From Candidatus Epulonipiscium viviparus (GTDB taxonomy: Bacteria > Bacillota > Clostridia > Lachnospirales > Cellulosilyticaceae): a stretch of DNA of 61,840 bases. The notes below the pieces were generated by a model, which saw only the letters and a list, made by a program, of their open reading frames with translations, was not told the origin of the DNA and searched no databases. The translations under genes and the position numbers were made by a program. Position 1 is the first letter of the stretch, and every line of letters starts with the position of its first letter. Below are positions 30,084 through 56,531 of the stretch, piece after piece. The DNA is taken from positions 1 to 61,840 of the forward strand of contig NZ_ABEQ01000006.1 of assembly GCF_000171335.1 (NCBI RefSeq), read 5' to 3'.

Positions 30084-33000
30084 TTAGCGCTTCGATGCCT
30101 GGCTAACTAGTTTAATAACCATCAAACATGCTACAACAGTTAACGCCTGAACAGTTAAAGTTTTGTAGAACTTGCGTTTGAGAGCAGATTTGTTAATAGG
30201 TTGTTTAATAACTTTGGCAATTTTGAGTTCGCCAGCCAAATCGGAGTCGATATGTTCGGCTCTGAATACTGAAATCGCAAGGTCAGCAGGGGGTTCGATA
30301 AAATCCAAAATGGCATTATCTTCCAAAAGGTGAGCATCGACAAACTCTTCAAAAGCAGTTACATCAATGGCTCTGTCATCAAATTTATCAGCATCATCGG
30401 AGGCATTATCAGCATGAGAAGCCGCGGTAGTTGCCGAAGATTTCTTAGCATTATTAGAAGCATCAGCATGAGAAGCCGTAGTTGTTGAAGATTCATCAGC
30501 ATCATCGGAGGCATCATCAGCATGAGAAGCCGCGGTAGTTGCCGAAGATTTCGTAGCATTATTGGAAGCATCTTCATGAGAAGCCGCGGTAGTTGCCGAA
30601 GATTTCGTAGCATCATCAGAAGCATCAGCATGAGAAGCCGTTGTAGTTGCCGAAGATTTCTTAGCATTATCAGAAGCATCGTCATAAGAAGCCGCGGTAG
30701 TTGCCGAAGATTTCTTAGCATTATCAGAAGCATCAGCATGAGAAGCCGTTGTAGTTGCCGAAGATTTCTTAGCATTATCAGAAGCATCGTCATGAGAAGC
30801 CGTTGTAGTTGCCCAAAATTTACCAGCATTATCAGAAGCATCAGCATGAGAAGCTGTTGTAGTTGCGATAGATTTGTGTGCTTCAGCTAGAATGTCATCA
30901 ATCTTAGAAACAGATTCATCAGTATTATCAGAAAGAACATGAATTTCAGAGGTCAATTTAATTGCAGCTGGAGCAGTTTCATCAGCATTATCAGAAGCAT
31001 CTTCATGAGAAGCCGTTGTAGTTGCCGAAGATTTCGTAGCATTATCAGAAGCATCTTCATGAGCAGCCGCGGTAGTTGCCGAAGATTTCGTAGCATTATC
31101 AGAAGCATCGTCATGAGAAGCCGCGGTAGTTGCCGAAGATTTCTTAGCATTATTGGAAGCATCAGCATGAGAAGCTGTTGTAGTTGCGATAGATTTGTGT
31201 GCTTCAGCTAGAATGTCATCAATCTTAGAAACAGATTCATCAGTATTATCAGAAAGAACATGAATTTCAGAGGTCAATTTAATTGCAGCTGGAGCAGTTT
31301 CATCAGCATTATCAGAAGCATCAGCATGAGAAGCCGTGGTAGTTGCCGAAGATTTCTTAGCATTATCGGAAGCATCATCATGAGAAGCCGCGGTAGTTGC
31401 CGAAGATTTCGTAGCATTATCAGAAGCATCTTCATGAGAAGCCACTGGAGTTGCCGAAGATTTCTTAGCATTATCAGAAGCATCATCATGAGAAGCCGCG
31501 GTAGTTGCCGAAGATTTCGTAGCATTATCAGAAGCATCGTCATGAGAAGCCGCGGTAGTTGTTGAAGATTCATCAGCATTATCAGAAGCATCGTCATGAG
31601 AAGCTGTTGTAGTTGCGATAGATTTGTGTGCTTCAGCTAGAATGTCATCAATCTTAGAAACAGATTCATCATCATTATCAGAAAGAACATGAATTTCAGA
31701 GGTCAATTTAATTGCAGCTGGAGCAGTTTCATCAGCATTACCAGAGGCATCATCAGCATGAGAAGCCGTAGTTGTTGAAGATTTATCAGCATCATCGGAG
31801 GCATCATCAGCATGAGAAGCCACTGGAGTTGCCGAAGATTTCGTAGCATTATCAGAAGCATCAGCATGAGAAGCCACTGTAATTGTTGAAGATTCGTCAG
31901 CATCATCGGAGGCATCATTAGCATGAGAAGCCACTGTAATTGTTGAAGATTCGTCAGCATCATCGGAGGCATCATCAGCATGAGAAGCCACTGTAATTGT
32001 TGAAGATTCGTCAGCATCATCGGAGGCATCATCAGCATGAGAAGCCACTGTAATTGTTGGAGATTCGTCAGCATCATCGGAGGCATCATTAGCATGAGAA
32101 GCTACTGGAGTTGTTGAAGATTCATCAGCATCATCGGAGGCATCATCAGCATGAGAAGCCACTGTAATTGTTGGAGATTCGTCAGCATCATCGGAGGCAT
32201 CATTAGCATGAGAAGCTACTGGAGTTGTTGAAGATTTATCAGCATCATCGGAGGCATCATCAGCATGAGAAGCCGTTGTAGTTGCCGAAGATTTCTTAGC
32301 ATTATCAGAAGCATCGTCATGAGAAGCCGCGGTAGTTGTTGAAGATTCATCAGCATTATCAGAAGCATCGTCATGAGAAGCCGCGGTAGTTGCCGAAGAT
32401 TTCGTAGCATTATCAGAAGCATCTTCATGAGAAGCCGTTGTGGTTGCCCAAAATTTACCAGCATTATCAGAAGCATCGTCATGAGAAGCCACTGGAGTTG
32501 CCGAAGATTTCTTAGCATTATTGGAAGCATCGTCATGAGAAGCCGCGGTAGTTGTTGAAGATTCATCAGCATCATCGGAGGCATCATCAGCATGAGAAGC
32601 CGTAGTTGTTGAAGATTTATCAGCATTATCAGAAGCATCGTCATGAGAAGCCACTGGAGTTGCCGAAGATTTCTTAGCATTATCAGAAGCATCAGCATGA
32701 GAAGCCGCGGTAGTTGCCGAAGATTTCTTAGCATTATCAGAAGCATCGTCATGAGAAGCCGCGGTAGTTGCCGAAGATTTCTTAGCATTATCAGAAGCAT
32801 CGTCATGAGAAGCCGCGGTAGTTGTTGAAGATTCATCAGCATTATCAGAAGCATCTTCATGAGAAGCCGTTGTGGTTGCCCAAAATTTACCAGCATTATC
32901 AGAAGCATCGTCATGAGAAGCCACTGGAGTTGCCGAAGATTTCTTAGCATTATTGGAAGCATCTTCATGAGAAGCTGTTGTAGTTGCGATAGATTTGTGT

Positions 33001-36000
33001 GATTCAGCTAGAATGTCATCAATCTTAGAAACAGATTCATCATCATTATCAGAAAGAACATGAATTTCAGAGGTCAATTTAATTGCAGCTGGAGCAGTTT
33101 CATCAGCATTATCAGAAGCATCATCAGCATGAGAAGCCGTAGTTGTTGAAGATTTATCAGCATTATCAGAAGCATCGTCATGAGAAGCTGCGGTAGTTGC
33201 CGAAAATTTCTTAGCATTATCAGAAGCATCAGCATGAGAAGCCGCGGTAGTTGCGATAGATTTGTGTGCTTCAGCTAGAATGTCATCAATCTTAGAAACA
33301 GATTCATCATCATTATCAGAAAGAACATGAATTTCAGAGGTCAATTTAATTGCAGCTGGAGCAGTTTCATCAGCATTACCAGAGGCATCATCAGCATGAG
33401 AAGCCGTAGTTGTTGGAGATTTATCAGTATTATCGGAAGCATCTTCATGAGAAGCCGTTGTGGTTGCCCAAAATTTACCAGCATTATCAGAAGCATCGTC
33501 ATGAGAAGCCACTGGAGTTGCCGAAGATTTCTTAGCATTATCAGAAGCATCGTCATGAGAAGCCACTGGAGTTGTTGAAGATTCATCAGCATTATCAGAA
33601 GCATCGTCATGAGAAGCCACTGGAGTTGTTGAAGATTCATCAGCATTATCAGAAGCATCTTCATGAGAAGCCACTGGAGTTGCCGAAGATTTCTTAGCAT
33701 TATCGGAAGCATCGTCATGAGAAGCCGCGGTAGTTGTTGAAGATTCATCAGCATTATCAGAAGCATCGTCATGAGAAGCCGCGGTAGTTGTTGAAGATTC
33801 ATCAGCATTATCAGAAGCATCGTCATGAGAAGCCGCGGTAGTTGCCGAAGATTTCTTAGCATTATCAGAAGCATCAGCATGAGAAGCCGCGGTAGTTGCC
33901 GAAGATTTATCAGCATTATCAGAAGCATCTTCATGAGAAGCCGTGATAGTTGTTGAAGATTTATCAGCATTATCAGAAGCATCGTCATGAGAAGCCGCGG
34001 TAGTTGCCGAAGATTTCTTAGCATTATTGGAAGCATCGTCATGAGAAGCCGTTGTAGTTGCGATAGATTTGTGTGCTTCAGCTAGAATGTCATCAATCTT
34101 AGAAACAGATTCATCATCATTATCAGAAAGAACATGAATTTCAGAGGTCAATTTAATTGCAGCTGGAGCAGTTTCATCAGCATTATCAGAAGCATCAGCA
34201 TGAGAAGCCGTAGTTGTTGAAGATTTATCAGCATTATCAGAAGCATCTTCATGAGAAGCCACGGTAGTTGTTGAAGATTCATCAGCATTATCAGAAGCAT
34301 CTTCATGAGAAGCCACTGGAGTTGCCGAAGATTTCTTAGCATTATCGGAAGCATCTTCATGAGAAGCCGCGGTAGTTGTTGAAGATTTATCAGCATCATC
34401 GGAAGCATCATCAGCATGAGAAGCCGCGGTAGTTGTTGAAGATTCATCAGCATTATCAGAAGCATCGTCATGAGAAGCCACTGTAACTGCCGAAGATTTC
34501 TTAGCAGCATTATTAGAGGCATCATCAGCATGAGAAGCCGTTGTAGTTGCCGAAGATTTCTTAGCATTATTGGAAGCATCGTCATGAGAAGCCGCGGTAG
34601 TTGTTGAAGATTCATCAGCATCATCGGAGGCATCATCAGCATGAGAAGCTGTTGTAGTTGCGATAGATTTGTGTGCTTCAGCTAGAATGTCATCAATCTT
34701 AGAAACAGATTCATCATCATTATCAGAAAGAACATGAATTTCAGAGGTCAATTTAATTGCAGCTGGAGCAGTTTCATCAGCATTATCAGAAGCATCGTCA
34801 TGAGAAGCCACTGGAGTTGTTGAAGATTTATCAGCATCATCGGAGGCATCATTAGCATGAGAAGCTACTGGAGTTGTTGAAGATTCATCAGCATCATCGG
34901 AGGCATCATCAGCATGAGAAGCCAATGGAGTTGCCGAAGATTTCTTAGCAGCATTATTGGAAGCATCGTCATGAGAAGCCACTGGAGTTGTTGAAGATTC
35001 ATCAGCATTATCAGAAGCATCAGCATGAGAAGCCGCGGTAGTTGCCGAAGATTTCTTAGTATTATCAGAAGCATCGTCATGAGAAGCCGTAGTTGTTGAA
35101 AATTCATCAGCATCATCGGAGGCATCATCAGCATGAGAAGCTACTGGAGTTGTTGAAGATTCATCAGCATCATCGGAGGCATCATTAGCATGAGAAGCTA
35201 CTGGAGTTGTTGAAGATTCATCAGCATCATCGGAGGCATCATCAGAATGAGAAGCCACTGTAATTGTTGAAGATTCGTCAGCATCATCGGAGGCATCATC
35301 AGCATGAGAAGCTACTGGAGTTGTTGAAGATTCATCAGCATCATCGGAGGCATCATCAGAATGAGAAGCTACTGGAGTTGTTGAAGATTCATCAGCATCA
35401 TCGGAGGCATCATTAGCATGAGAAGCCACTGTAATTGTTGAAGATTCGTCAGCATCATCGGAGGCATCATCAGCATGAGAAGCCACTGTAATTGTTGAAG
35501 ATTCGTCAGCATCATCGGAGGCATCATCAGCATGAGAAGCCAATGGAGTTGCCGAAGATTTCTTAGCAGCATTATTAGAAGCATCATTAGCATGAGAAGC
35601 TACTGGAGTTGTTGAAGATTCGTCAGCATCATCGGAGGCATCATTAGCATGAGAAGCTACTGGAGTTGTTGAAGATTCATCAGCATCATCGGAGGCATCA
35701 TCAGCATGAGAAGCTACTGGAGTTGTTGAAGATTCATCAGCATCATCGGAGGCATCATCAGCATGAGAAGCCACTGAAGTTGTTGAAGATTCGTCAGCAT
35801 CAATATCAGTAATTTCAGGCTCGTAAACTTCATGAACTTCGTATTCAGCGGCAGTTTTGCCAGTGATAGAGATGGCCTCAATTTCTTCGAATGACACGGT
35901 TGCAATGCGTTCTTTTTCTATGAAAGCAGCAGGCGCGACTGTAGATTCAGCTATTTTTGCTTTTTCCTTCAATACCATTTTAATGGAAGAATCTTTTATT

Positions 36001-37904
36001 CTAACAGCTTTCTGATCGTCGGCTTCATTAGCAATACATAAATCATAATCAACGCATTTGGTGCAAATTGTCAGGTCAAAATATAATTCTTGCCCATTTT
36101 TTACTTTTTTAGACACAATATCTTCATCTTGAACACATTTTTTAACAGGCTTATTCTTTTCCAAGACCAAATAATCAAGTCCTTGCTTGTATAAAACTTT
36201 ATCTGGCTTATTTTCTTTGGTAGAAGTTGCGTGAAGAGCCTGTTCCTGAGCGAAAGCAATAGCGGATGGATCCGCTGTTTCGATAAGAGCAAGACGATGC
36301 GCTTCAAATTCCCAATCCTCTTTGGAAGACAGCTTTTTGGTTGCAAAGAACTCTACATTGTAGCTCCTAAGCGTTTCGCAAAATTCAAAGGGTTCAAAAT
36401 CAAATTCTTTGGATTCATAAATAAATAGATGAGATTTAGCAGCGGTAATGGCAGTGTAAAAAATATTGAAATAATGGCGGATACGATTTTTATTTGTATC
36501 TGCACCACTTAATATTTTGGCCCAATCAGCCTTGGCGGAAGACATAATATCATAGCAATAAATATTTTCGTATTCCAAACCACGAATTTCGTTGACCAAA
36601 AATAATCTACCAATAGCAATGTTATATTTTTTGGCTAATGTATTCTTAATTTTTTCGCTACCAACAACGATAGCAAAATAGTGTTTATCAGCAATGGAAG
36701 CAAAGAGAGCTTTTTGATCTTTCAACTTAACCATATGTGGAAAAGGACCATTTCTGGCACCAACTTCTGTATAATCATAAAAAGTTCTTTCGCAAAAAGA
36801 CTGTCGGAGATAAGATACTTCGTTAACAAATTCTGACAGTTCTTTAATGGATCTGTAATTTATTTCAGAGAATCCGCAATACATATTGGGTGCAAATAGT
36901 GCAGAAAATGGTAAATACAGCAGTTGATTGGGGTCGCCAGTCCAAATAATTTTGGTAGAAGATAACCTAGAGATGGCAGCAATCTGTGCCTTGGTAAATT
37001 TATGAGCTTCATCGGCAATAATTAAATCGTAATCGGGAACTTTTGAGAGTCGCAAAACTTTCTTTGCAATATCATTAGCATCAAATAAATTCGATTCATC
37101 TAAAAAATCTTGATAGGCCTGAGCGAGCTTGTAAACTTGTTCTTTCGCACTGTGACTGAACTTGGAATACGGAAATTTTTTATATTCATGTAAAGGAAAC
37201 AGAGTATGATGAATAGAGTAACCTTTGATTATTTCTGAGATTTCGGCAGCTATTTCTGAAATTTCCTTTTTGCTTACGATTTGAAATCCGGTTTGAGCTT
37301 TGAGCCAAGTGATAGTGGCAGCAGCAGATTGAATTTGGTCGTTAGATATACCCGCAACTTGTGCTAATGCAGCGGTCGCAGAGGTAAAATCGGCAGTGGC
37401 CGCGGGATAATTAGATTGGGCGATCTCTAAAGCAAGCCGAGAAGCAGTGAGATATAAGGTTTGTCCAGCAGTTAATTTTTCTAAAGGAAGAATAGTTTTA
37501 CCAGTCCCTTTTGCCAAAAAAATTTGATTATTAAGAACCGGAGTGACATCGAGAATAGTGTGAACTTTTTTAATTGTGCGAGTAATAGAATGAGGAGCCA
37601 ATTTAATATGGTTATAATTAAGTGAACGGGCATCCCTTTCCTGAGCATCATGAGTTACATAACCTAAATATACAATATTTTTTCCAGAAGCATCAAATTT
37701 AAATAGGATACGATTGGCCCTATCAAGACGGAATTTAAAGATTTCTTCACTTTTAGATTTGCGAATAGTACGAATATAATAGCTGTTGGGCATATTCCGT
37801 AGCTGATAATTGCAGTTGCGCAAATGATTTTCGAATTGTTCTAGCTTGGGAAGAATATCAACATTTTTAGGGACAGTTTTACTAAAGTTTTTTTTAAATT
37901 GCAT
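30084..37904 (-). CDS. Giant RelE-like / SF1 helicase protein with acidic repeats and C-terminal membrane helix
   Basis: A single uninterrupted frame of 2606 codons; the start is the ATG 6 nt after AAAAAGGAG. Residues 1-100 resemble a RelE/ParE-fold toxin (YYIRTIRKS, FKFRLDRANRILFKFDASG, YLGYVTHDAQERDARSL). Residues 120-500 hold the ordered motifs of a UvrD/Rep-type helicase: I GTGKT (133-137), II DLIIADEAH (293-301), III WTGDPNQLLY (321-330), IV NYRS (349-352), V FLVNEIRGLEYENI (435-448), VI FYTAITAAKSHLF (482-494). The first Walker A glycine is Ala/Lys and the arginine normally in motif VI is Ala, so ATPase activity is uncertain. Cys590, 614, 617 and 623 could bind zinc. Residues about 700-2510 are acidic Ala/Ser/Asp repeats. 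The last 31 residues contain one helix, TLTVQALTVVACLMVIKLV, flanked by lysines, a tail anchor by appearance. No antitoxin or partner gene is adjacent; no function is known to me. Confidence 0.75.
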   Translation of the reverse strand: MQFKKNFSKTVPKNVDILPKLEQFENHLRNCNYQLRNMPNSYYIRTIRKSKSEEIFKFRLDRANRILFKFDASGKNIVYLGYVTHDAQERDARSLNYNHIKLAPHSITRTIKKVHTILDVTPVLNNQIFLAKGTGKTILPLEKLTAGQTLYLTASRLALEIAQSNYPAATADFTSATAALAQVAGISNDQIQSAAATITWLKAQTGFQIVSKKEISEIAAEISEIIKGYSIHHTLFPLHEYKKFPYSKFSHSAKEQVYKLAQAYQDFLDESNLFDANDIAKKVLRLSKVPDYDLIIADEAHKFTKAQIAAISRLSSTKIIWTGDPNQLLYLPFSALFAPNMYCGFSEINYRSIKELSEFVNEVSYLRQSFCERTFYDYTEVGARNGPFPHMVKLKDQKALFASIADKHYFAIVVGSEKIKNTLAKKYNIAIGRLFLVNEIRGLEYENIYCYDIMSSAKADWAKILSGADTNKNRIRHYFNIFYTAITAAKSHLFIYESKEFDFEPFEFCETLRSYNVEFFATKKLSSKEDWEFEAHRLALIETADPSAIAFAQEQALHATSTKENKPDKVLYKQGLDYLVLEKNKPVKKCVQDEDIVSKKVKNGQELYFDLTICTKCVDYDLCIANEADDQKAVRIKDSSIKMVLKEKAKIAESTVAPAAFIEKERIATVSFEEIEAISITGKTAAEYEVHEVYEPEITDIDADESSTTSVASHADDASDDADESSTTPVASHADDASDDADESSTTPVASHANDASDDADESSTTPVASHANDASNNAAKKSSATPLASHADDASDDADESSTITVASHADDASDDADESSTITVASHANDASDDADESSTTPVASHSDDASDDADESSTTPVASHADDASDDADESSTITVASHSDDASDDADESSTTPVASHANDASDDADESSTTPVASHADDASDDADEFSTTTASHDDASDNTKKSSATTAASHADASDNADESSTTPVASHDDASNNAAKKSSATPLASHADDASDDADESSTTPVASHANDASDDADKSSTTPVASHDDASDNADETAPAAIKLTSEIHVLSDNDDESVSKIDDILAEAHKSIATTTASHADDASDDADESSTTTAASHDDASNNAKKSSATTTASHADDASNNAAKKSSAVTVASHDDASDNADESSTTTAASHADDASDDADKSSTTTAASHEDASDNAKKSSATPVASHEDASDNADESSTTTVASHEDASDNADKSSTTTASHADASDNADETAPAAIKLTSEIHVLSDNDDESVSKIDDILAEAHKSIATTTASHDDASNNAKKSSATTAASHDDASDNADKSSTTITASHEDASDNADKSSATTAASHADASDNAKKSSATTAASHDDASDNADESSTTTAASHDDASDNADESSTTTAASHDDASDNAKKSSATPVASHEDASDNADESSTTPVASHDDASDNADESSTTPVASHDDASDNAKKSSATPVASHDDASDNAGKFWATTTASHEDASDNTDKSPTTTASHADDASGNADETAPAAIKLTSEIHVLSDNDDESVSKIDDILAEAHKSIATTAASHADASDNAKKFSATTAASHDDASDNADKSSTTTASHADDASDNADETAPAAIKLTSEIHVLSDNDDESVSKIDDILAESHKSIATTTASHEDASNNAKKSSATPVASHDDASDNAGKFWATTTASHEDASDNADESSTTTAASHDDASDNAKKSSATTAASHDDASDNAKKSSATTAASHADASDNAKKSSATPVASHDDASDNADKSSTTTASHADDASDDADESSTTTAASHDDASNNAKKSSATPVASHDDASDNAGKFWATTTASHEDASDNATKSSATTAASHDDASDNADESSTTTAASHDDASDNAKKSSATTTASHADDASDDADKSSTTPVASHANDASDDADESPTITVASHADDASDDADESSTTPVASHANDASDDADESPTITVASHADDASDDADESSTITVASHADDASDDADESSTITVASHANDASDDADESSTITVASHADASDNATKSSATPVASHADDASDDADKSSTTTASHADDASGNADETAPAAIKLTSEIHVLSDNDDESVSKIDDILAEAHKSIATTTASHDDASDNADESSTTTAASHDDASDNATKSSATTAASHDDASDNAKKSSATPVASHEDASDNATKSSATTAASHDDASDNAKKSSATTTASHADASDNADETAPAAIKLTSEIHVLSDNTDESVSKIDDILAEAHKSIATTTASHADASNNAKKSSATTAASHDDASDNATKSSATTAAAHEDASDNATKSSATTTASHEDASDNADETAPAAIKLTSEIHVLSDNTDESVSKIDDILAEAHKSIATTTASHADASDNAGKFWATTTASHDDASDNAKKSSATTTASHADASDNAKKSSATTAASYDDASDNAKKSSATTTASHADASDDATKSSATTAASHEDASNNATKSSATTAASHADDASDDADESSTTTASHADASNNAKKSSATTAASHADNASDDADKFDDRAIDVTAFEEFVDAHLLEDNAILDFIEPPADLAISVFRAEHIDSDLAGELKIAKVIKQPINKSALKRKFYKTLTVQALTVVACLMVIKLVSQASKR
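30372..35805 (-). repeat. Coding tandem array of 54/57-nt units, about 80-90 copies
   Basis: Within the giant gene. The basic unit encodes about 18 residues of the form ASH-DDASDNAKKSSATTA; a 19-residue variant reads ASHADDASDDADESSTTPV. Variable positions are limited: A/D/E after His, N/D in the second DN, K/D/T/G then K/E, and PV, TA, TT or TV at the end. Neighbouring units are often identical in DNA, a sign of recombination or slippage keeping the array uniform. All indels are multiples of three. Confidence 0.95.
30864..34779 (-). repeat. Seven copies of a 120-nt module dispersed in the repeat array
   Basis: A 40-residue module, beginning DETAPAAIKLTSEIHVLSDN and ending ESVSKIDDILAEAHKSIA, replaces simple repeats at 30864-30983, 31186-31305, 31615-31734, 32986-33105, 33253-33372, 34060-34179 and 34660-34779. 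The copies differ at one or two residues (D or T after LSDN; A or S before HKSI). Spacing is irregular, from about 270 to 1370 nt. Unlike the simple repeats the module has hydrophobic residues with helical spacing and may be a small binding or folding unit. Confidence 0.95.
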
Positions 37905-37943
37905 ATTAAACTCCTTTTTAATAAGTATAATTTTTATATTATG

Positions 37944-41931: not shown

Positions 41932-42762
41932 TTGAGTTCATCTAGGCTAAAACTACATGGATTTAATAACCTAACCAAAACTTTAAGTTTTAATATGTAT
42001 GACATTTGTTATACAAAAAATGAAGCTGACCGAACCGCGTATATTGAATACATTGATGAACAGTATAATGCAGATAGACTGACACATATCTTGACAACGG
42101 TGACAGAAATTATAGGAGCTAACGTCTTAAATATTGCAAAACAAGACTACGAACCGCAAGGAGCAAGTGTGACAATTTTAGTATCAGAAGGTCCTGTAAA
42201 TGCAAGAGAGCAAGAGATTCAGGTACACACAGCATCTCCGGGACCAATCCCAGGTGCAATAGCAGCTCATTTGGATAAAAGTCATATAACTGTGCACACA
42301 TATCCGGAATACCATCCACATGAAGGAATAAGTACATTTAGAGCAGATATTGATGTATCTACATGTGGCGAGATTTCACCCCTAAAAGCGCTTAATTATT
42401 TGATACACTGTTTTGATGCAGACATAATGACGATAGACTATCGTATTCGTGGATTTACAAGAGATATCACCGGCAAAAAGATGTTTATTGACCACAAAAT
42501 TAATTCGATACAGAACTACATTCCAGATGATGTGATTAATATGTATAATATGATTGATGTGAATATCTATCAAGATAAAATTTTTCATACTAAATGCAAG
42601 CTCAAAGAATTTGACTTAGATAATTATTTATTTGGTTATACAAAAGAAGAGCTACACCCGGGGCTGCGTCGAGAAATAGCAAAAAAAGTTAAGAGAGAAA
42701 TGGACGAAATTTTTTATGGTACCAACGTAAAAGACGCCATGTTCAAGATAGATGAATCATAA
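41932..42762 (+). CDS. speD: S-adenosylmethionine decarboxylase proenzyme, E. coli type
   Basis: A 276-residue class 1A SpeD, closely similar to the E. coli enzyme: [14 protein letters not shown] at the N-terminus, [19 protein letters not shown], and [15 protein letters not shown], where the proenzyme is expected to cleave before the Ser of KSH to make the pyruvoyl cofactor. The C-terminal domain [21 protein letters not shown] follows. It makes decarboxylated AdoMet, the aminopropyl donor for SpeE encoded next. The start is a TTG after AAAGGGGG; the frame is open upstream but has no ribosome site. It overlaps the next gene by 11 nt. Confidence 0.9.
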
Positions 42763-45082
42763 CAAAACCCCCCTACTTAGAGGGGTACTAGATTATGTGA
42801 AAACAGAGCCGACCTGCTTTGATGTTCCGGGGCATAAGATGGGAAAAGGCATAACACATTTACCAGATTTGTGGGGAGAAATGGTATTAAAAATGGACAT
42901 AAACTCTTCACCAGCAGTGGATAATCTGGCAAATCCAAAGAGTATTATTAAAGAGGCAGAAGTTTTGCTAGCAGATGCGTATGGGGCCGAGTTTGCATAT
43001 ATGTTAGTAAACGGATCAACCAGTGGTGTAATAGCTATGATTATGAGTGCGATATCATTTGGGGATAAAATAATTTTGCCTCGAAATGTTCATAAATCTG
43101 CGATAAACGCATTAATTCTCTCGGGAGGCATTCCAGTTTTTATAGATTCTGAAATTGATGAACAATTAGGGATATCAAATGGAGTAACACTAAGTAAGAT
43201 AGCCCATGCGTTGGATTTAAATCCGACAGTGAAAGCGGTATTTGTATTGCACCCAACATATTTTGGTGTAACATCAAACCTAAAAAGCATAATAAAATTT
43301 TGTCATGAGCGAGGCATAGCGGTTTTGGTGGATATGGCACATGGGGCGCATTTTGGATTTTCGGAATATACACCTGTAAATCCAGCAAGGCTAGGAGCAG
43401 ATCTTGTAACAACGAGTATGCATAAAACGGGAGGAGCACTCACTCAAACTTCTATAATTTTGCAAAATACAGGATTAATTACAAAAGAGAAAGTGCGATG
43501 CGCAATTAACTTATTGCAAACGACATCGGCATCATACTTATTGATGTGTTCGATAGATGAAGCGAGAAGGATGCTTGTGATAGAAGGAAAAGAGCGGCTA
43601 GATGCATTATATAAAATAGCGGCAAAGGCAAAAGCTGAAATAAACAGGATGAACGGACTTAGTTGTCTAATGCGGGAAGAATATGTTGAAGCAAAAGGAG
43701 TCTTTGATTTCGATGATTTAAAAATGGTTATTTCTGTAAAAGAGCTTTCAGTATCAGGATTTTTTGTATATGCATTATTGAAAGAAAAGTATAATATTCA
43801 AATTGAATTAGCAGAACCATTTGTGATCCTTGCAATTATTTCGTTTGGAGATACAGAACAAACAGTAAATAAATTAGTAACTGCACTTGCCAATATAAGT
43901 GAGTTATACTATAAAAAAGATAAAGGGAGCAAAAATACAATTCACTTTAATGAGTTTCCCAAAACAATTCTTTCTCCAAGAGATGCGTACTATTACGCCA
44001 AAAAAGAGGTTGACATAAGACAGGCAGTGGGTCAAATATGTGGAGAAGTTGTAATGATTTACCCTCCAGGGATACCAATAATTATTCCGGGAGAAAAGAT
44101 TAATCGAAAGCTCATTGACTATTTTCTGTACTTAATGCAAGAAAGTGTTATGATTTTGAAGGATAGTGAAGTTGTAGAGAATATATTAATAATAGATAAA
44201 AATTTGGAGGAAAATTCTATGGATTTATGGTATACAGAAAATCATCAAAACGATACAAAGTTTTCTATTCAGGTAAGCGAACATATTCATACAGAGAAAA
44301 GTGAATTTCAAGAAATAGACTTTTTTAAAAGTAAAACCTTTGGTACGTTTTTTACATTAGATGGGCTTATGATGGTAACTGAAAAAGATGAGTTTATTTA
44401 TCACGATATGATTGTGCATGTGCCTATGGCAGTTAATCCAGACGTTAAGAAAGTGTTAATAATTGGCGGAGGAGACGGAGGAACAGCGCGTGAAGTTTTG
44501 AGATATAGCAGTGTGGAACAGGTAGATATGGTAGAAATAGATGAAAGAGTAGTGCGTTTATGCCAAAAATATTTGCAGCAAACAGCTTGTAAGTTGGATA
44601 ATGATGTGCGCCTCAAGATGTATTTTGAAGATGGATTAAAATTTGTTCAAGAATGTGCAGATAATAGCTATGATTTAATTTTGGTAGACTCGACAGATCC
44701 AATAGGACCAGGAGAAGGGCTATTCACATATGCTTTTTATAATAACTGCAAGAGAATTTTGACAAAAAATGGTATATTAATTAATCAACATGAGAGCCCG
44801 TACTATGAAAGCTATGCTCATGAGATGCGTCGTTCATCGAAGAAAATTCGCGAAACATTTCCGATAGCAAAGGTGTATCAATTTCATATGCCGACATATC
44901 CATCTGGACATTGGTTATTTGGATTTGCGTCTAAGGAATTAGATCCTATTGTAGACCTAAAGGCAGACAAGTGGAATAGTCTGGGGCTAAAAACTAAATA
45001 TTATAATACGAATTTGCACGTGGGATCGTTTATGTTGCCAACATACGTAATAGAAATGTTAGAGGATACTGCAAATGTTTGA
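42752..45082 (+). CDS. Arginine decarboxylase-spermidine synthase fusion (SpeA-SpeE)
   Basis: A single 776-codon frame. Residues 1-489 are a fold-type I Orn/Lys/Arg decarboxylase of the Bacillus SpeA kind: [11 protein letters not shown] (24-34), NGSTSG (87-92), [12 protein letters not shown] and the PLP lysine in SMHKTGG (Lys225). Residues 490-776 are a full spermidine synthase: MDLWYTEN, the FxFKSKTFG region, [17 protein letters not shown] and [14 protein letters not shown]. The join is direct: LEENSM is encoded by TTGGAGGAAAATTCTATG, an intact ribosome site and start codon. The protein would thus link putrescine-pathway entry to aminopropyl transfer, with agmatinase encoded next. SpeA specificity for arginine is inferred from the adjacent speB. 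Confidence 0.85.
42770..42785 (+). promoter_or_regulatory. Hairpin just after the SpeA-SpeE start codon
   Basis: CCCCT and AGGGG pair around a 6-nt loop, 18 nt into the fusion gene and just past the speD stop codon. The gene has only a weak ribosome site (AGATAG), so this stem could influence coupling of its translation to speD. Confidence 0.3.
44204..44221 (+). promoter_or_regulatory. Internal ribosome binding site and ATG for stand-alone SpeE
   Basis: TTGGAGGAAAATTCTATG: GGAGG with 7-nt spacing to an in-frame ATG, exactly where free SpeE proteins begin (MDLWYTEN). It is a strong site, the same kind as those used by other genes in the window, so free SpeE is probably made besides the fusion. 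Confidence 0.7.
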
Positions 45083-46222: not shown

Positions 46223-47331
46223 TTTTACAATTGACGGGAAGTATTCTTTTTATTCTGCTGACTGTGATAATATTAATTTTATTTTTGCCGAATAAGTATG
46301 TTATTTATATGGAAAATTGGGAACAATTATTATTGAAGATTAAGTTTATGCTTTGGAACTTTATTAAAATACAATTTGAATATATTAATAAAAAAGTGTT
46401 ATTTGAAGCTTATGTATTTAATAAATTAGTGTATCCATCATCGAAAGAAAAAAAGAAGAAAAATAAAAGATTTGGTGTTGACTTAAAGGCAAAGAAAACT
46501 AAGAAAAATGTGGAGAAAACACAATCTGAAAAAACGCCTAAAGCGAATGTAGCGTCATCTGAAAAAACATCTAAAGCGAATGTAGCGTCATCTGAAAAAA
46601 CGCCTAAAGTGAATATGGCAGATACTGGAAAATACAAGACTTTTATAAAGGGAATTAAAACTGAAGTTGAAATGCCAAAGCCTGTAGAGAATTGTGTGTA
46701 TCAAGTTGGTGAATTAGATAAGGAATTTCAGCAAGTATTAGATGAAGAGTTTATAAGAAATATGAATTTTTCATTAGCAAAAGAGTTTGAGATTGTGTTT
46801 AATTATAATTTAACAGAGGAATTTGATAGAGAATTCAATTCTACTTTTAGTATTATATTTGATGATACTGAGAGTAGGGACAAAAGAGAAGCTAAAGCGA
46901 AAAAAGTTAAAGAAAATGCTGAAAAGACTGATTACAAAAAAGTTTTTAGTACTATAAAAAATAGTGAATATAGACACGATGCGGTATCGAGATTTGTAAC
47001 AGCATTGAAAAAAACGATAAAAGCGACAGCTCCAGACAAATTTCAGTTTGAAGTGGAAGTAGGTGCAAAGTCAGCAGCAACAACGGGAGAAATTATCGGT
47101 GCTTGCGCTATGTTTTATCCTTATTATGCTCCGTATGGAACAATTAATGGAAATTTTAGTGATGAAGTTCTTAAAGGTGATGCTTTTATAAAGGGGCAAT
47201 TTAATGTTGCGACACTGATGTTGATAATGTTAAATCTTATAGTGTATAAACCGTTTAGAATTTTTACGCAAGAGATTTTAGATAGTATGAAACCAGAGAA
47301 GAAAGAGGAATCAAATGATGACAGAAAATAA
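46216..47331 (+). CDS. DUF2953 membrane protein, YtfI-like
   Basis: A 371-residue protein with one N-terminal membrane helix (GSILFILLTVIILILFLP). The C-terminal half, from FQFEVEVGAKSAATTGEIIGACAMFYPYY to the end, is the DUF2953 core. Between them is a charged linker with three 11-residue tandem repeats (EKTPKANVASS, EKTSKANVASS, EKTPKVNMADT) encoded by 33-nt units. DUF2953 genes usually precede gerW as here; they are linked to sporulation by context only. Confidence 0.75.
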   Translation: MVILQLTGSILFILLTVIILILFLPNKYVIYMENWEQLLLKIKFMLWNFIKIQFEYINKKVLFEAYVFNKLVYPSSKEKKKKNKRFGVDLKAKKTKKNVEKTQSEKTPKANVASSEKTSKANVASSEKTPKVNMADTGKYKTFIKGIKTEVEMPKPVENCVYQVGELDKEFQQVLDEEFIRNMNFSLAKEFEIVFNYNLTEEFDREFNSTFSIIFDDTESRDKREAKAKKVKENAEKTDYKKVFSTIKNSEYRHDAVSRFVTALKKTIKATAPDKFQFEVEVGAKSAATTGEIIGACAMFYPYYAPYGTINGNFSDEVLKGDAFIKGQFNVATLMLIMLNLIVYKPFRIFTQEILDSMKPEKKEESNDDRK

Positions 47332-55232: not shown

Positions 55233-56531
55233 TTGTATGAGGATAAACATAAAAAAATATTATTGATTTTTTTATCACTTATAAGTATTATGATATTAAT
55301 AAGCCCAGTGGTAATTGCAAAATATTATTTACCAGATGAAATAAATATGGTTGTAGGTCAGGAATATAGTATAGATTTTAATATTCCAGTTAAAGCTACT
55401 ATAAAAGCTCAAGATGAAAATTTAATTTTAGATGATAATATAAATAATGTATTAGAGGGGATAAAAAACATAAATTTGAATGATCCTTTAGTAGTAAAAG
55501 CTGCAGATGAAGGAAGCGCAAAACTGAAAATAAATTTGTTAGGATCTATTCCAATCAAAACAGTTATCGTTTCGGTTCGTCCTCATATGGAAGTGATTCC
55601 GGGTGGAGATGTAATAGGAATAGAAATACATTCTGTGGGAGTTTGTGTTGTTGGAACTGGTGAATTTGAATCTGATGGGAATCAAGTACATCCTTGTAAA
55701 GGAAAGATTAAAAAAGGTGATCGAATTCTTTCAATTAATAATAATCCAGTAAATACTAAAGAAGATTTTAAAAAATATATAGAAACCAATTCTAATACTC
55801 CTGTAGTTTTGGATATCATGCGTGAAGATAAATATATTCAAACAGAAGTGGTACCTGAATATTCAAATGCAGAAGATAGTTATAAATTAGGAATATGGAT
55901 AAAAGATACTGTTCAGGGGTTGGGTACACTTACTTATGTTGAACCAGAAACGGGAAATTTTGGTGCATTGGGTCATGGCATAACAGATACCGATTTTGAA
56001 AAAATTATTCCTATTTCGCATGGAAAAATTATGGAAGCAGAAATAGATGGCATCAAAAAAGGTGAAGCGGGTGTTCCAGGTGAAATTAGTGGAATAATTG
56101 ATACAGCTGATGCAGCAAGTCTTGGTAGTGTAGCTAACAATACTAATTGCGGAATTTTTGGAATTATGGATGAAAATGATATAGAACAAGTGACCAAAGA
56201 AACAGTTCAAGTAGCTACTTCGAGTGAAGTAGAAGAAGGAGAGGCTGTAATTTTGGCTGATTTAACAGGAGAGGGAGTGCGGTCATATGATGTAAAAATT
56301 CAAAAGATAGCGAAGCATATTAGTGAACCGTCTAAAGGAATGATTGTAAAAATTATTGATGAAGAATTGTTAAATATTACAAAAGGAATAATTCAAGGGA
56401 TGAGTGGGTCTCCTATTATTCAAAATGATAAAATTATAGGAGCTATAAGTCATGTATTTGTCAATGATCCAACAACAGGATATGGAATTTTTATAGAGAA
56501 TATGCTAAAAACAGCAGAAAATATTGAGTAA
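55233..56531 (+). CDS. spoIVB: SpoIVB serine peptidase
   Basis: A 432-residue sporulation protease. One N-terminal membrane helix (residues 9-29), a PDZ domain with VHPCKGKIKKGDRILSINNNPV (about 152-173), and an S55 peptidase domain with GHGITD (His249) and QGMSGSPI (Ser393 by analogy with the B. subtilis catalytic Ser). It is secreted from the forespore and triggers sigma-K processing. It starts at a TTG after an AGGATG-type site. Its usual upstream neighbour recN is missing and spo0A does not follow. The absence of a clear sigma-A promoter upstream agrees with sporulation-sigma control. Confidence 0.9.
   Translation: MYEDKHKKILLIFLSLISIMILISPVVIAKYYLPDEINMVVGQEYSIDFNIPVKATIKAQDENLILDDNINNVLEGIKNINLNDPLVVKAADEGSAKLKINLLGSIPIKTVIVSVRPHMEVIPGGDVIGIEIHSVGVCVVGTGEFESDGNQVHPCKGKIKKGDRILSINNNPVNTKEDFKKYIETNSNTPVVLDIMREDKYIQTEVVPEYSNAEDSYKLGIWIKDTVQGLGTLTYVEPETGNFGALGHGITDTDFEKIIPISHGKIMEAEIDGIKKGEAGVPGEISGIIDTADAASLGSVANNTNCGIFGIMDENDIEQVTKETVQVATSSEVEEGEAVILADLTGEGVRSYDVKIQKIAKHISEPSKGMIVKIIDEELLNITKGIIQGMSGSPIIQNDKIIGAISHVFVNDPTTGYGIFIENMLKTAENIE

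What the first reader, a model, noticed from the sequence alone, without database searches (positions are those of the whole stretch)
30084..37904. RelE-like toxin fold fused to a degenerate SF1 helicase, a giant acidic tether and a membrane tail
One 2606-codon gene joins a RelE/ParE-like N-terminus, an ordered set of UvrD/Rep motifs, a Cys cluster, about 1800 residues of Ala/Ser/Asp repeat and a single C-terminal hydrophobic helix. I know of RelE-like domains near helicases, but not of one tethered to the membrane by such a linker. If fully extended the repeat could reach hundreds of nanometres. It might hold a nucleic-acid sensor or nuclease-like effector at the membrane, for example in defence, conjugation control or chromosome organisation. 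No adjacent antitoxin gene is visible.
Basis: partly seen in the sequence, partly recalled or inferred. Interest (0 to 1): 0.85.

Follow-up and report, generated by a model that had tools for sequence, protein, structure and literature searches.

The report
Membrane-anchored pseudo-helicase in giant bacteria
The giant fish-gut bacterium Epulopiscium carries a 2,606-residue protein in which a toxin-like, probably RNA-binding head and a burnt-out helicase appear to hang from the cell membrane on a very long acidic string, and a second Epulopiscium species keeps the same layout with an unrelated string and anchor, which suggests the tether itself does something useful.

Summary
The gene (30084-37904, minus strand, 2,606 codons, AAGGAG ribosome site) lies in what is, by contig count and kinship, the Epulopiscium sp. 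type B draft. It encodes a RelE/YoeB-like head (fold evidence convergent, no single significant hit); an SF1 helicase core that, unlike 13 relatives, has lost the Q motif, part of the P-loop and the motif VI arginine; a conserved four-cysteine cluster; about 1,800 residues of acidic 18-residue repeats; and a C-terminal membrane helix.

New: (1) an intact sister copy in the same genomes is RelE-like + normal-looking helicase + Sel1 repeats, so this gene is a duplicate that diverged inside the genus. (2) A second species (AS2M-Bin001) has the orthologue at the same site, with the head under purifying selection but an unrelated acidic 18-residue repeat and unrelated terminal helix: architecture kept, sequence not. 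(3) The wider family is patchy in Bacillota, and several members neighbour defence genes.

Best reading: a tail-anchored, probably ATPase-dead tether for nucleic acid or ribosomes, perhaps tied to the peripheral DNA of these cells. Function is inferred. Caution: in the finished type B genome the repeat has at least six frame breaks, possibly assembly error.

The parts
30084..37904 (-). whole gene, 2,606 aa; ATG at 37904
   Evidence: orthologue starts at the same Met
37911..37916 (-). Shine-Dalgarno AAGGAG, 6 nt before the ATG
37590..37904 (-). residues 1-105, RelE/YoeB-like head; R65 and H85 invariant in the 11-member family alignments
36225..37562 (-). residues 115-560, SF1 (UvrD-like) helicase core, degenerate
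37494..37514 (-). P-loop remnant AKGTGKT (residues 131-137), two residues shorter than in relatives and without the first Gly
36441..36443 (-). residue 488, Ala where relatives have the motif VI Arg
36036..36137 (-). C590-X23-C614-X2-C617-X5-C623 cluster, weakly like the transposase zinc ribbon zf-Tnp_2
30384..35792 (-). residues 705-2507, acidic Ala/Ser/Asp/Thr tandem repeat, mostly 18-19 aa units
34656..34763 (-). 36-aa module AAIKLTSEIHVLSDNDDESVSKIDDILAEAHKSIAT, copy 1 of 7
34056..34163 (-). module copy 2
33249..33356 (-). module copy 3
32982..33089 (-). module copy 4
31611..31718 (-). module copy 5
31182..31289 (-). module copy 6
30861..30968 (-). module copy 7
30105..30161 (-). residues 2582-2600 TLTVQALTVVACLMVIKLV, C-terminal membrane helix; six residues follow
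   Evidence: counterpart in AS2M-Bin001

Best explanation
The gene encodes a tail-anchored cytoplasmic tether protein. The C-terminal helix sits in the cytoplasmic membrane with the bulk of the protein in the cytoplasm (inferred: no signal peptide, helix at the extreme end, KRKFYK on its N-side). The 1,800-residue acidic chain is a disordered spacer. The head is a RelE/YoeB-like domain plus a helicase core that probably no longer hydrolyses ATP normally but may still bind nucleic acid, plus a probable metal-binding Cys cluster. It arose by duplication of an intact RelE-helicase-Sel1 protein inside Epulopiscium; the repeat domain was replaced by spacer and anchor. Most likely role: to hold RNA, ribosomes or DNA, or a partner of them, within reach of the membrane in a giant, highly polyploid cell whose DNA lies as a network under that membrane. 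Shown: anatomy, motif loss, purifying selection on the head, conserved architecture in two species. Inferred: topology, loss of ATPase activity, binding partner, role.
For: Motifs: both orthologues lack the Q motif, have a P-loop two residues short, and Ala or Val for the motif VI Arg; all 13 other members compared keep the P-loop and the Arg. Head under selection: dN 0.14 (residues 1-105), 0.33 (106-560), 0.19 (560-640) with synonymous sites near saturation. Architecture conserved: in AS2M-Bin001 one contig ends in the linker after pheST and the head; another contig ends in the same EPDVEIKV(D/E)EIE repeat, in 18-aa units, closed by a C-terminal hydrophobic helix (hydropathy 2.2), and continues into the same ABC permease as in the window. 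Tree: the two orthologues are sister to the Epulopiscium Sel1 paralogues, 100/100, stem 1.14. Same head and tail in a second genome of the species. [quoted passage not shown]
Against: In the finished genome of the species the array has at least six frame-breaking spacings, so as assembled the ORF ends near residue 790 and does not reach the anchor. pheS in that assembly also carries a frame disturbance at its start, so error is plausible but unproven. Units of the array vary almost neutrally (pN/pS 0.86). A strongly acidic spacer would be repelled by DNA. No nucleic-acid binding, topology or expression was measured. Linking the two AS2M contigs rests on shared repeat and synteny, not on a read. 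G001 and G003 show no such gene at this site.
Confidence: 0.45

Rival explanations
1. A membrane-anchored antiphage effector: the helicase core and Cys cluster sense foreign nucleic acid and the RelE-like head cleaves or blocks mRNA or ribosomes, with the tether keeping it at the site of DNA entry.
For: Two residues invariant in the family alignments, R65 and H85, line up with YoeB Arg65 and His83. Relatives sit beside DarT1-NADAR, the PADLOC candidate defence gene PDC-M26A, a probable reverse transcriptase, and AAA plus HNH genes. Patchy distribution: 7 of 392, 8 of 391 and 10 of 398 genomes at different cut-offs.
Against: ATPase motifs expected for sensing or translocation are lost in just this clade. 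No YoeB Glu46 equivalent seen. No antitoxin or defence gene adjacent; neighbours are pheST and a sugar ABC transporter. The Sel1 sister copy keeps the ancestral form.
Confidence: 0.25
2. A relict: after duplication the helicase decayed, and the repeat is a slippage expansion with no function, on its way to loss.
For: Degenerate motifs, near-neutral variation between repeat units, frame breaks in the finished genome of the species, gene not found in two congeners.
Against: Head dN far below dS across 61% protein identity; the window array keeps frame, every anchor spacing a multiple of 3; only 2 amino-acid changes among 8 nucleotide changes in the first 704 codons between the two type B genomes; an unrelated repeat plus anchor is kept in a second species.
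Confidence: 0.2
3. A surface or wall protein whose acidic repeat is an extracellular stalk, as in Sdr-type proteins.
For: Asp/Ser-rich repeat before a C-terminal hydrophobic helix with a positive end.
Against: No signal peptide, no LPXTG motif, and the head is made of intracellular nucleic-acid domains.
Confidence: 0.03

Closest known systems
RelE-like + SF1 helicase + Sel1/TPR/ankyrin proteins (annotated as UvrD-helicase domain-containing, TPR or ankyrin protein; e.g. Paraclostridium WP_247014280.1, Cetobacterium WP_330112254.1, and the Epulopiscium Sel1 paralogue)
   Same: Same order of RelE-like head and SF1 core; shared invariant Arg and His in the head; one member (G1057) also has a C-terminal CxxCxxxxxC cluster
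   Different: They keep the ATPase motifs and most end in superhelical repeats; no giant linker or terminal membrane tail was seen in those read
[quoted passage not shown]
   Same: RelE-superfamily-like domain in the cytoplasm on a membrane protein
   Different: ToxM has a central membrane helix, an extracellular C-terminal domain and an antitoxin; here the helix is terminal, a helicase core and 1,800-residue spacer intervene, and no antitoxin is adjacent
YoeB/YafQ/HigB/RelE mRNA interferases
   Same: Predicted fold and the positions of one Arg and one His
   Different: No Glu46-like base, no antitoxin, multidomain; activity untested
UvrD/Rep/GajB/RTasHel-type SF1 helicases
   Same: Recognisable core and motifs Ia, III, IV, V
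   Different: Q motif, full P-loop and motif VI Arg lost

Membership tests
RelE/ParE (BECR) toxin superfamily | fold | tested here: inconclusive
   Model of residues 1-105 has pLDDT 60 only; about 43 of the 50 best PDB chains are RelE/YoeB/HigB/YafQ-type or carry such a domain, but none has E below 0.001. Profile search finds YoeB at E 0.4. hhalign score 21.6-22.7 against at most 16.3 for shuffles. Leans to met.
RelE/ParE (BECR) toxin superfamily | match to a Pfam RelE/ParE family | tested here: not met
   no PF05016 match in G000; no RelE-family Pfam hit for the head
RelE/ParE (BECR) toxin superfamily | catalytic residues | tested here: inconclusive
   R65 and H85 invariant and aligned with YoeB Arg65 and His83; Glu46 equivalent not seen
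type II toxin-antitoxin module | adjacent antitoxin gene | tested here: not met
   neighbours are URO-D and pheST
SF1 UvrD/Rep helicase | homologous core domain | tested here: met
   PF00580 26.9 bits, cut-off 23
SF1 UvrD/Rep helicase | Q motif, complete Walker A, motif VI Arg | tested here: not met
ToxM | central membrane helix with extracellular C-terminal domain | tested here: not met
   helix at 2582-2600 of 2606
tail-anchored membrane protein | single hydrophobic helix at the C-terminus and no signal peptide | tested here: met
   by hydropathy only; insertion and topology not testable here
Gabija (GajAB) | GajB match and adjacent GajA | tested here: not met
   no GajB hit for the window protein, though the Sel1 paralogue has one; neighbours are not GajA
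Sdr-type surface proteins | signal peptide and LPXTG | tested here: not met
   read from the sequence

The most novel reading that the evidence does not exclude
A dedicated membrane tether, built from a retired RelE-helicase, that positions chromosomes, ribosomes or transcripts under the envelope of a giant polyploid bacterium, with reach set by a fast-changing acidic repeat whose architecture, not sequence, is selected.
Probability: 0.2. Interest if true: 0.85.

Novelty: new variant of a known kind. Interest (0 to 1): 0.64.

Why it matters
How Epulopiscium keeps its many chromosome copies in a layer beneath the cytoplasmic membrane is an open question; transertion is offered as a partial answer (PMC8245194). 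A tail-anchored protein with a nucleic-acid-type head and a very long spacer is a concrete candidate that localisation could test. It would also be a clear bacterial case of a pseudo-helicase kept as a scaffold, and of selection on linker architecture rather than sequence. The RelE-helicase-repeat family around it, with several members beside defence genes, has no Pfam name for its first domain.

Tried and rejected
AlphaFold2 on residues 1-650 with a two-sequence alignment failed (pLDDT 35), so no helicase model is claimed. Four viral-collection scans found no relative, nor did the phage collection. An AddB/Cas4-like iron-sulphur cluster was considered for the Cys pattern: the C-X2-C-X5-C spacing fits from memory, but only 23 residues separate the first two Cys, too few for a nuclease domain between them; the weak hit is zf-Tnp_2 (E 0.003). 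Surface-stalk reading rejected (no signal peptide or LPXTG). The tail helices of the two orthologues do not align better than shuffles (score 28, shuffled maximum 32), so they are called unrelated. The repeat and module occur nowhere else in the five Epulopiscium genomes searched. An insecticidal toxin matched a short piece of the head model; it was named only and not pursued.

Full report
Origin. The window is contig 87 of a 92-contig, 2,686,047-base assembly. The Epulopiscium sp. type B draft is described as about 2.7 Mbp in 92 large contigs (PMC3416734), and the only relative found in the named genome collection is Epulopiscium sp. AS2M-Bin001. A 'same species' genome, G096, is one contig of 3,282,261 bases, which fits the circular chromosome of approximately 3.28 Mbp reported for type B (PMC8245194). 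These identifications are inferences from size and kinship.

The gene. The ORF, start and domains are as stated. The helicase match passes the Pfam cut-off. The head has no Pfam name.

Head. With 11 members as a profile, YoeB chains are among the best PDB matches, but only at E about 0.4. Profile-profile comparison with RelE/YafQ-type toxins of related genomes scores 21.6-22.7, against at most 16.3 for column shuffles, over the beta-strand part only. A 105-residue model of modest confidence gives helices followed by four strands, and about 43 of its 50 best PDB matches are RelE/YoeB/HigB/YafQ-type toxins or carry such a domain. No single result is significant alone; together they make the RelE fold likely. 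R65 and H85 are invariant in the family alignments and align with YoeB Arg65 and His83, the transition-state stabiliser and general acid (PMC3814384).

Helicase core. Among 15 members compared, only the window protein and its orthologue lack the Q motif, have a shortened P-loop, and have Ala or Val for the motif VI Arg. The orthologue also has EE for DE in motif II. Motifs Ia, III, IV and V are kept. ATP hydrolysis is therefore probably lost; this is inference.

History. The two type B genomes, AS2M-Bin001 and a third Epulopiscium (G003) each have a sister protein with intact motifs and Sel1 repeats. The tree puts the window protein and the AS2M orthologue together and sister to these, 100/100, on a long stem. 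The orthologues are 61% identical; dN is 0.14 for the head, 0.33 for the core and 0.19 for the Cys region while synonymous sites are near saturation.

Linker and anchor. The array is acidic, its unit spacing is always a multiple of 3, and its units vary almost neutrally while the seven 36-aa modules are nearly identical. In AS2M-Bin001 the head contig ends inside an acidic linker. The end of another contig of that genome carries the same repeat (EKIEPDVEIKVDEIESDA, 18 aa), closes with YYKKAILASLAVAVTFLWLKAILKRLFK and a stop, and runs on into the permease gene that also follows in the window. Neither repeat nor tail resembles the type B ones. This is the strongest sign that spacer plus anchor matter. 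The two contigs were compared, not joined.

Caveat. In G096 the array is longer (119 against 99 copies) and at least six anchor spacings break the frame, while 12 kb of flanking unique sequence shows few indels. The tail is 99% identical. Error confined to repeats and real breakage cannot be told apart here.

Family context. Relatives occur in a few percent or fewer of the genomes sampled in the phylum and on plasmids of Paraclostridium, Cetobacterium, Piscirickettsia and Thermus. Neighbours of some are DarT1 with its NADAR antitoxin, PDC-M26A, AAA and HNH genes and a gene that reads as a reverse transcriptase by its YADD motif. Defence is thus a fair guess for the family, less so for this diverged copy. 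At the pheS site of two other Epulopiscium drafts other genes are found.

Verdict. A real, unusual architecture: a new variant of a RelE-helicase family, apparently turned into a membrane-tethered protein. Its role is inferred.

Noticed in passing
L109:1626-7999: DarT-domain gene, NADAR antitoxin, RelE-helicase protein and a 234-aa gene in one row, in genome G962.
   Followed up: partly
L015:3945-4664, L035:3848-4450, L109:7295-7999: A 200-240 aa protein without Pfam match follows the RelE-helicase gene in three relatives; possibly a partner.
   Followed up: no
L108:3603-7193: A RelE-helicase-TPR protein ends in a CxxCxxxxxC cluster like that of the window protein.
   Followed up: partly
42752-45082: One ORF fuses an Orn/Lys/Arg decarboxylase to a spermidine synthase.
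   Followed up: no
46524-46614: 33-bp tandem repeat inside a 371-aa ORF without Pfam match at the threshold used.
   Followed up: no
55233-56531: SpoIVB peptidase, a sporulation gene, in a bacterium that forms live internal offspring.
   Followed up: no
L033:1438-2493: The URO-D-like gene of the finished genome of the species has a 21-bp, Pro-rich insertion absent from the window.
   Followed up: no
L015:7296-8258: Protein that reads as FHA-domain by eye, with an N-terminal hydrophobic stretch and a long EEAARAEAAVRA repeat, next to a RelE-helicase gene.
   Followed up: no
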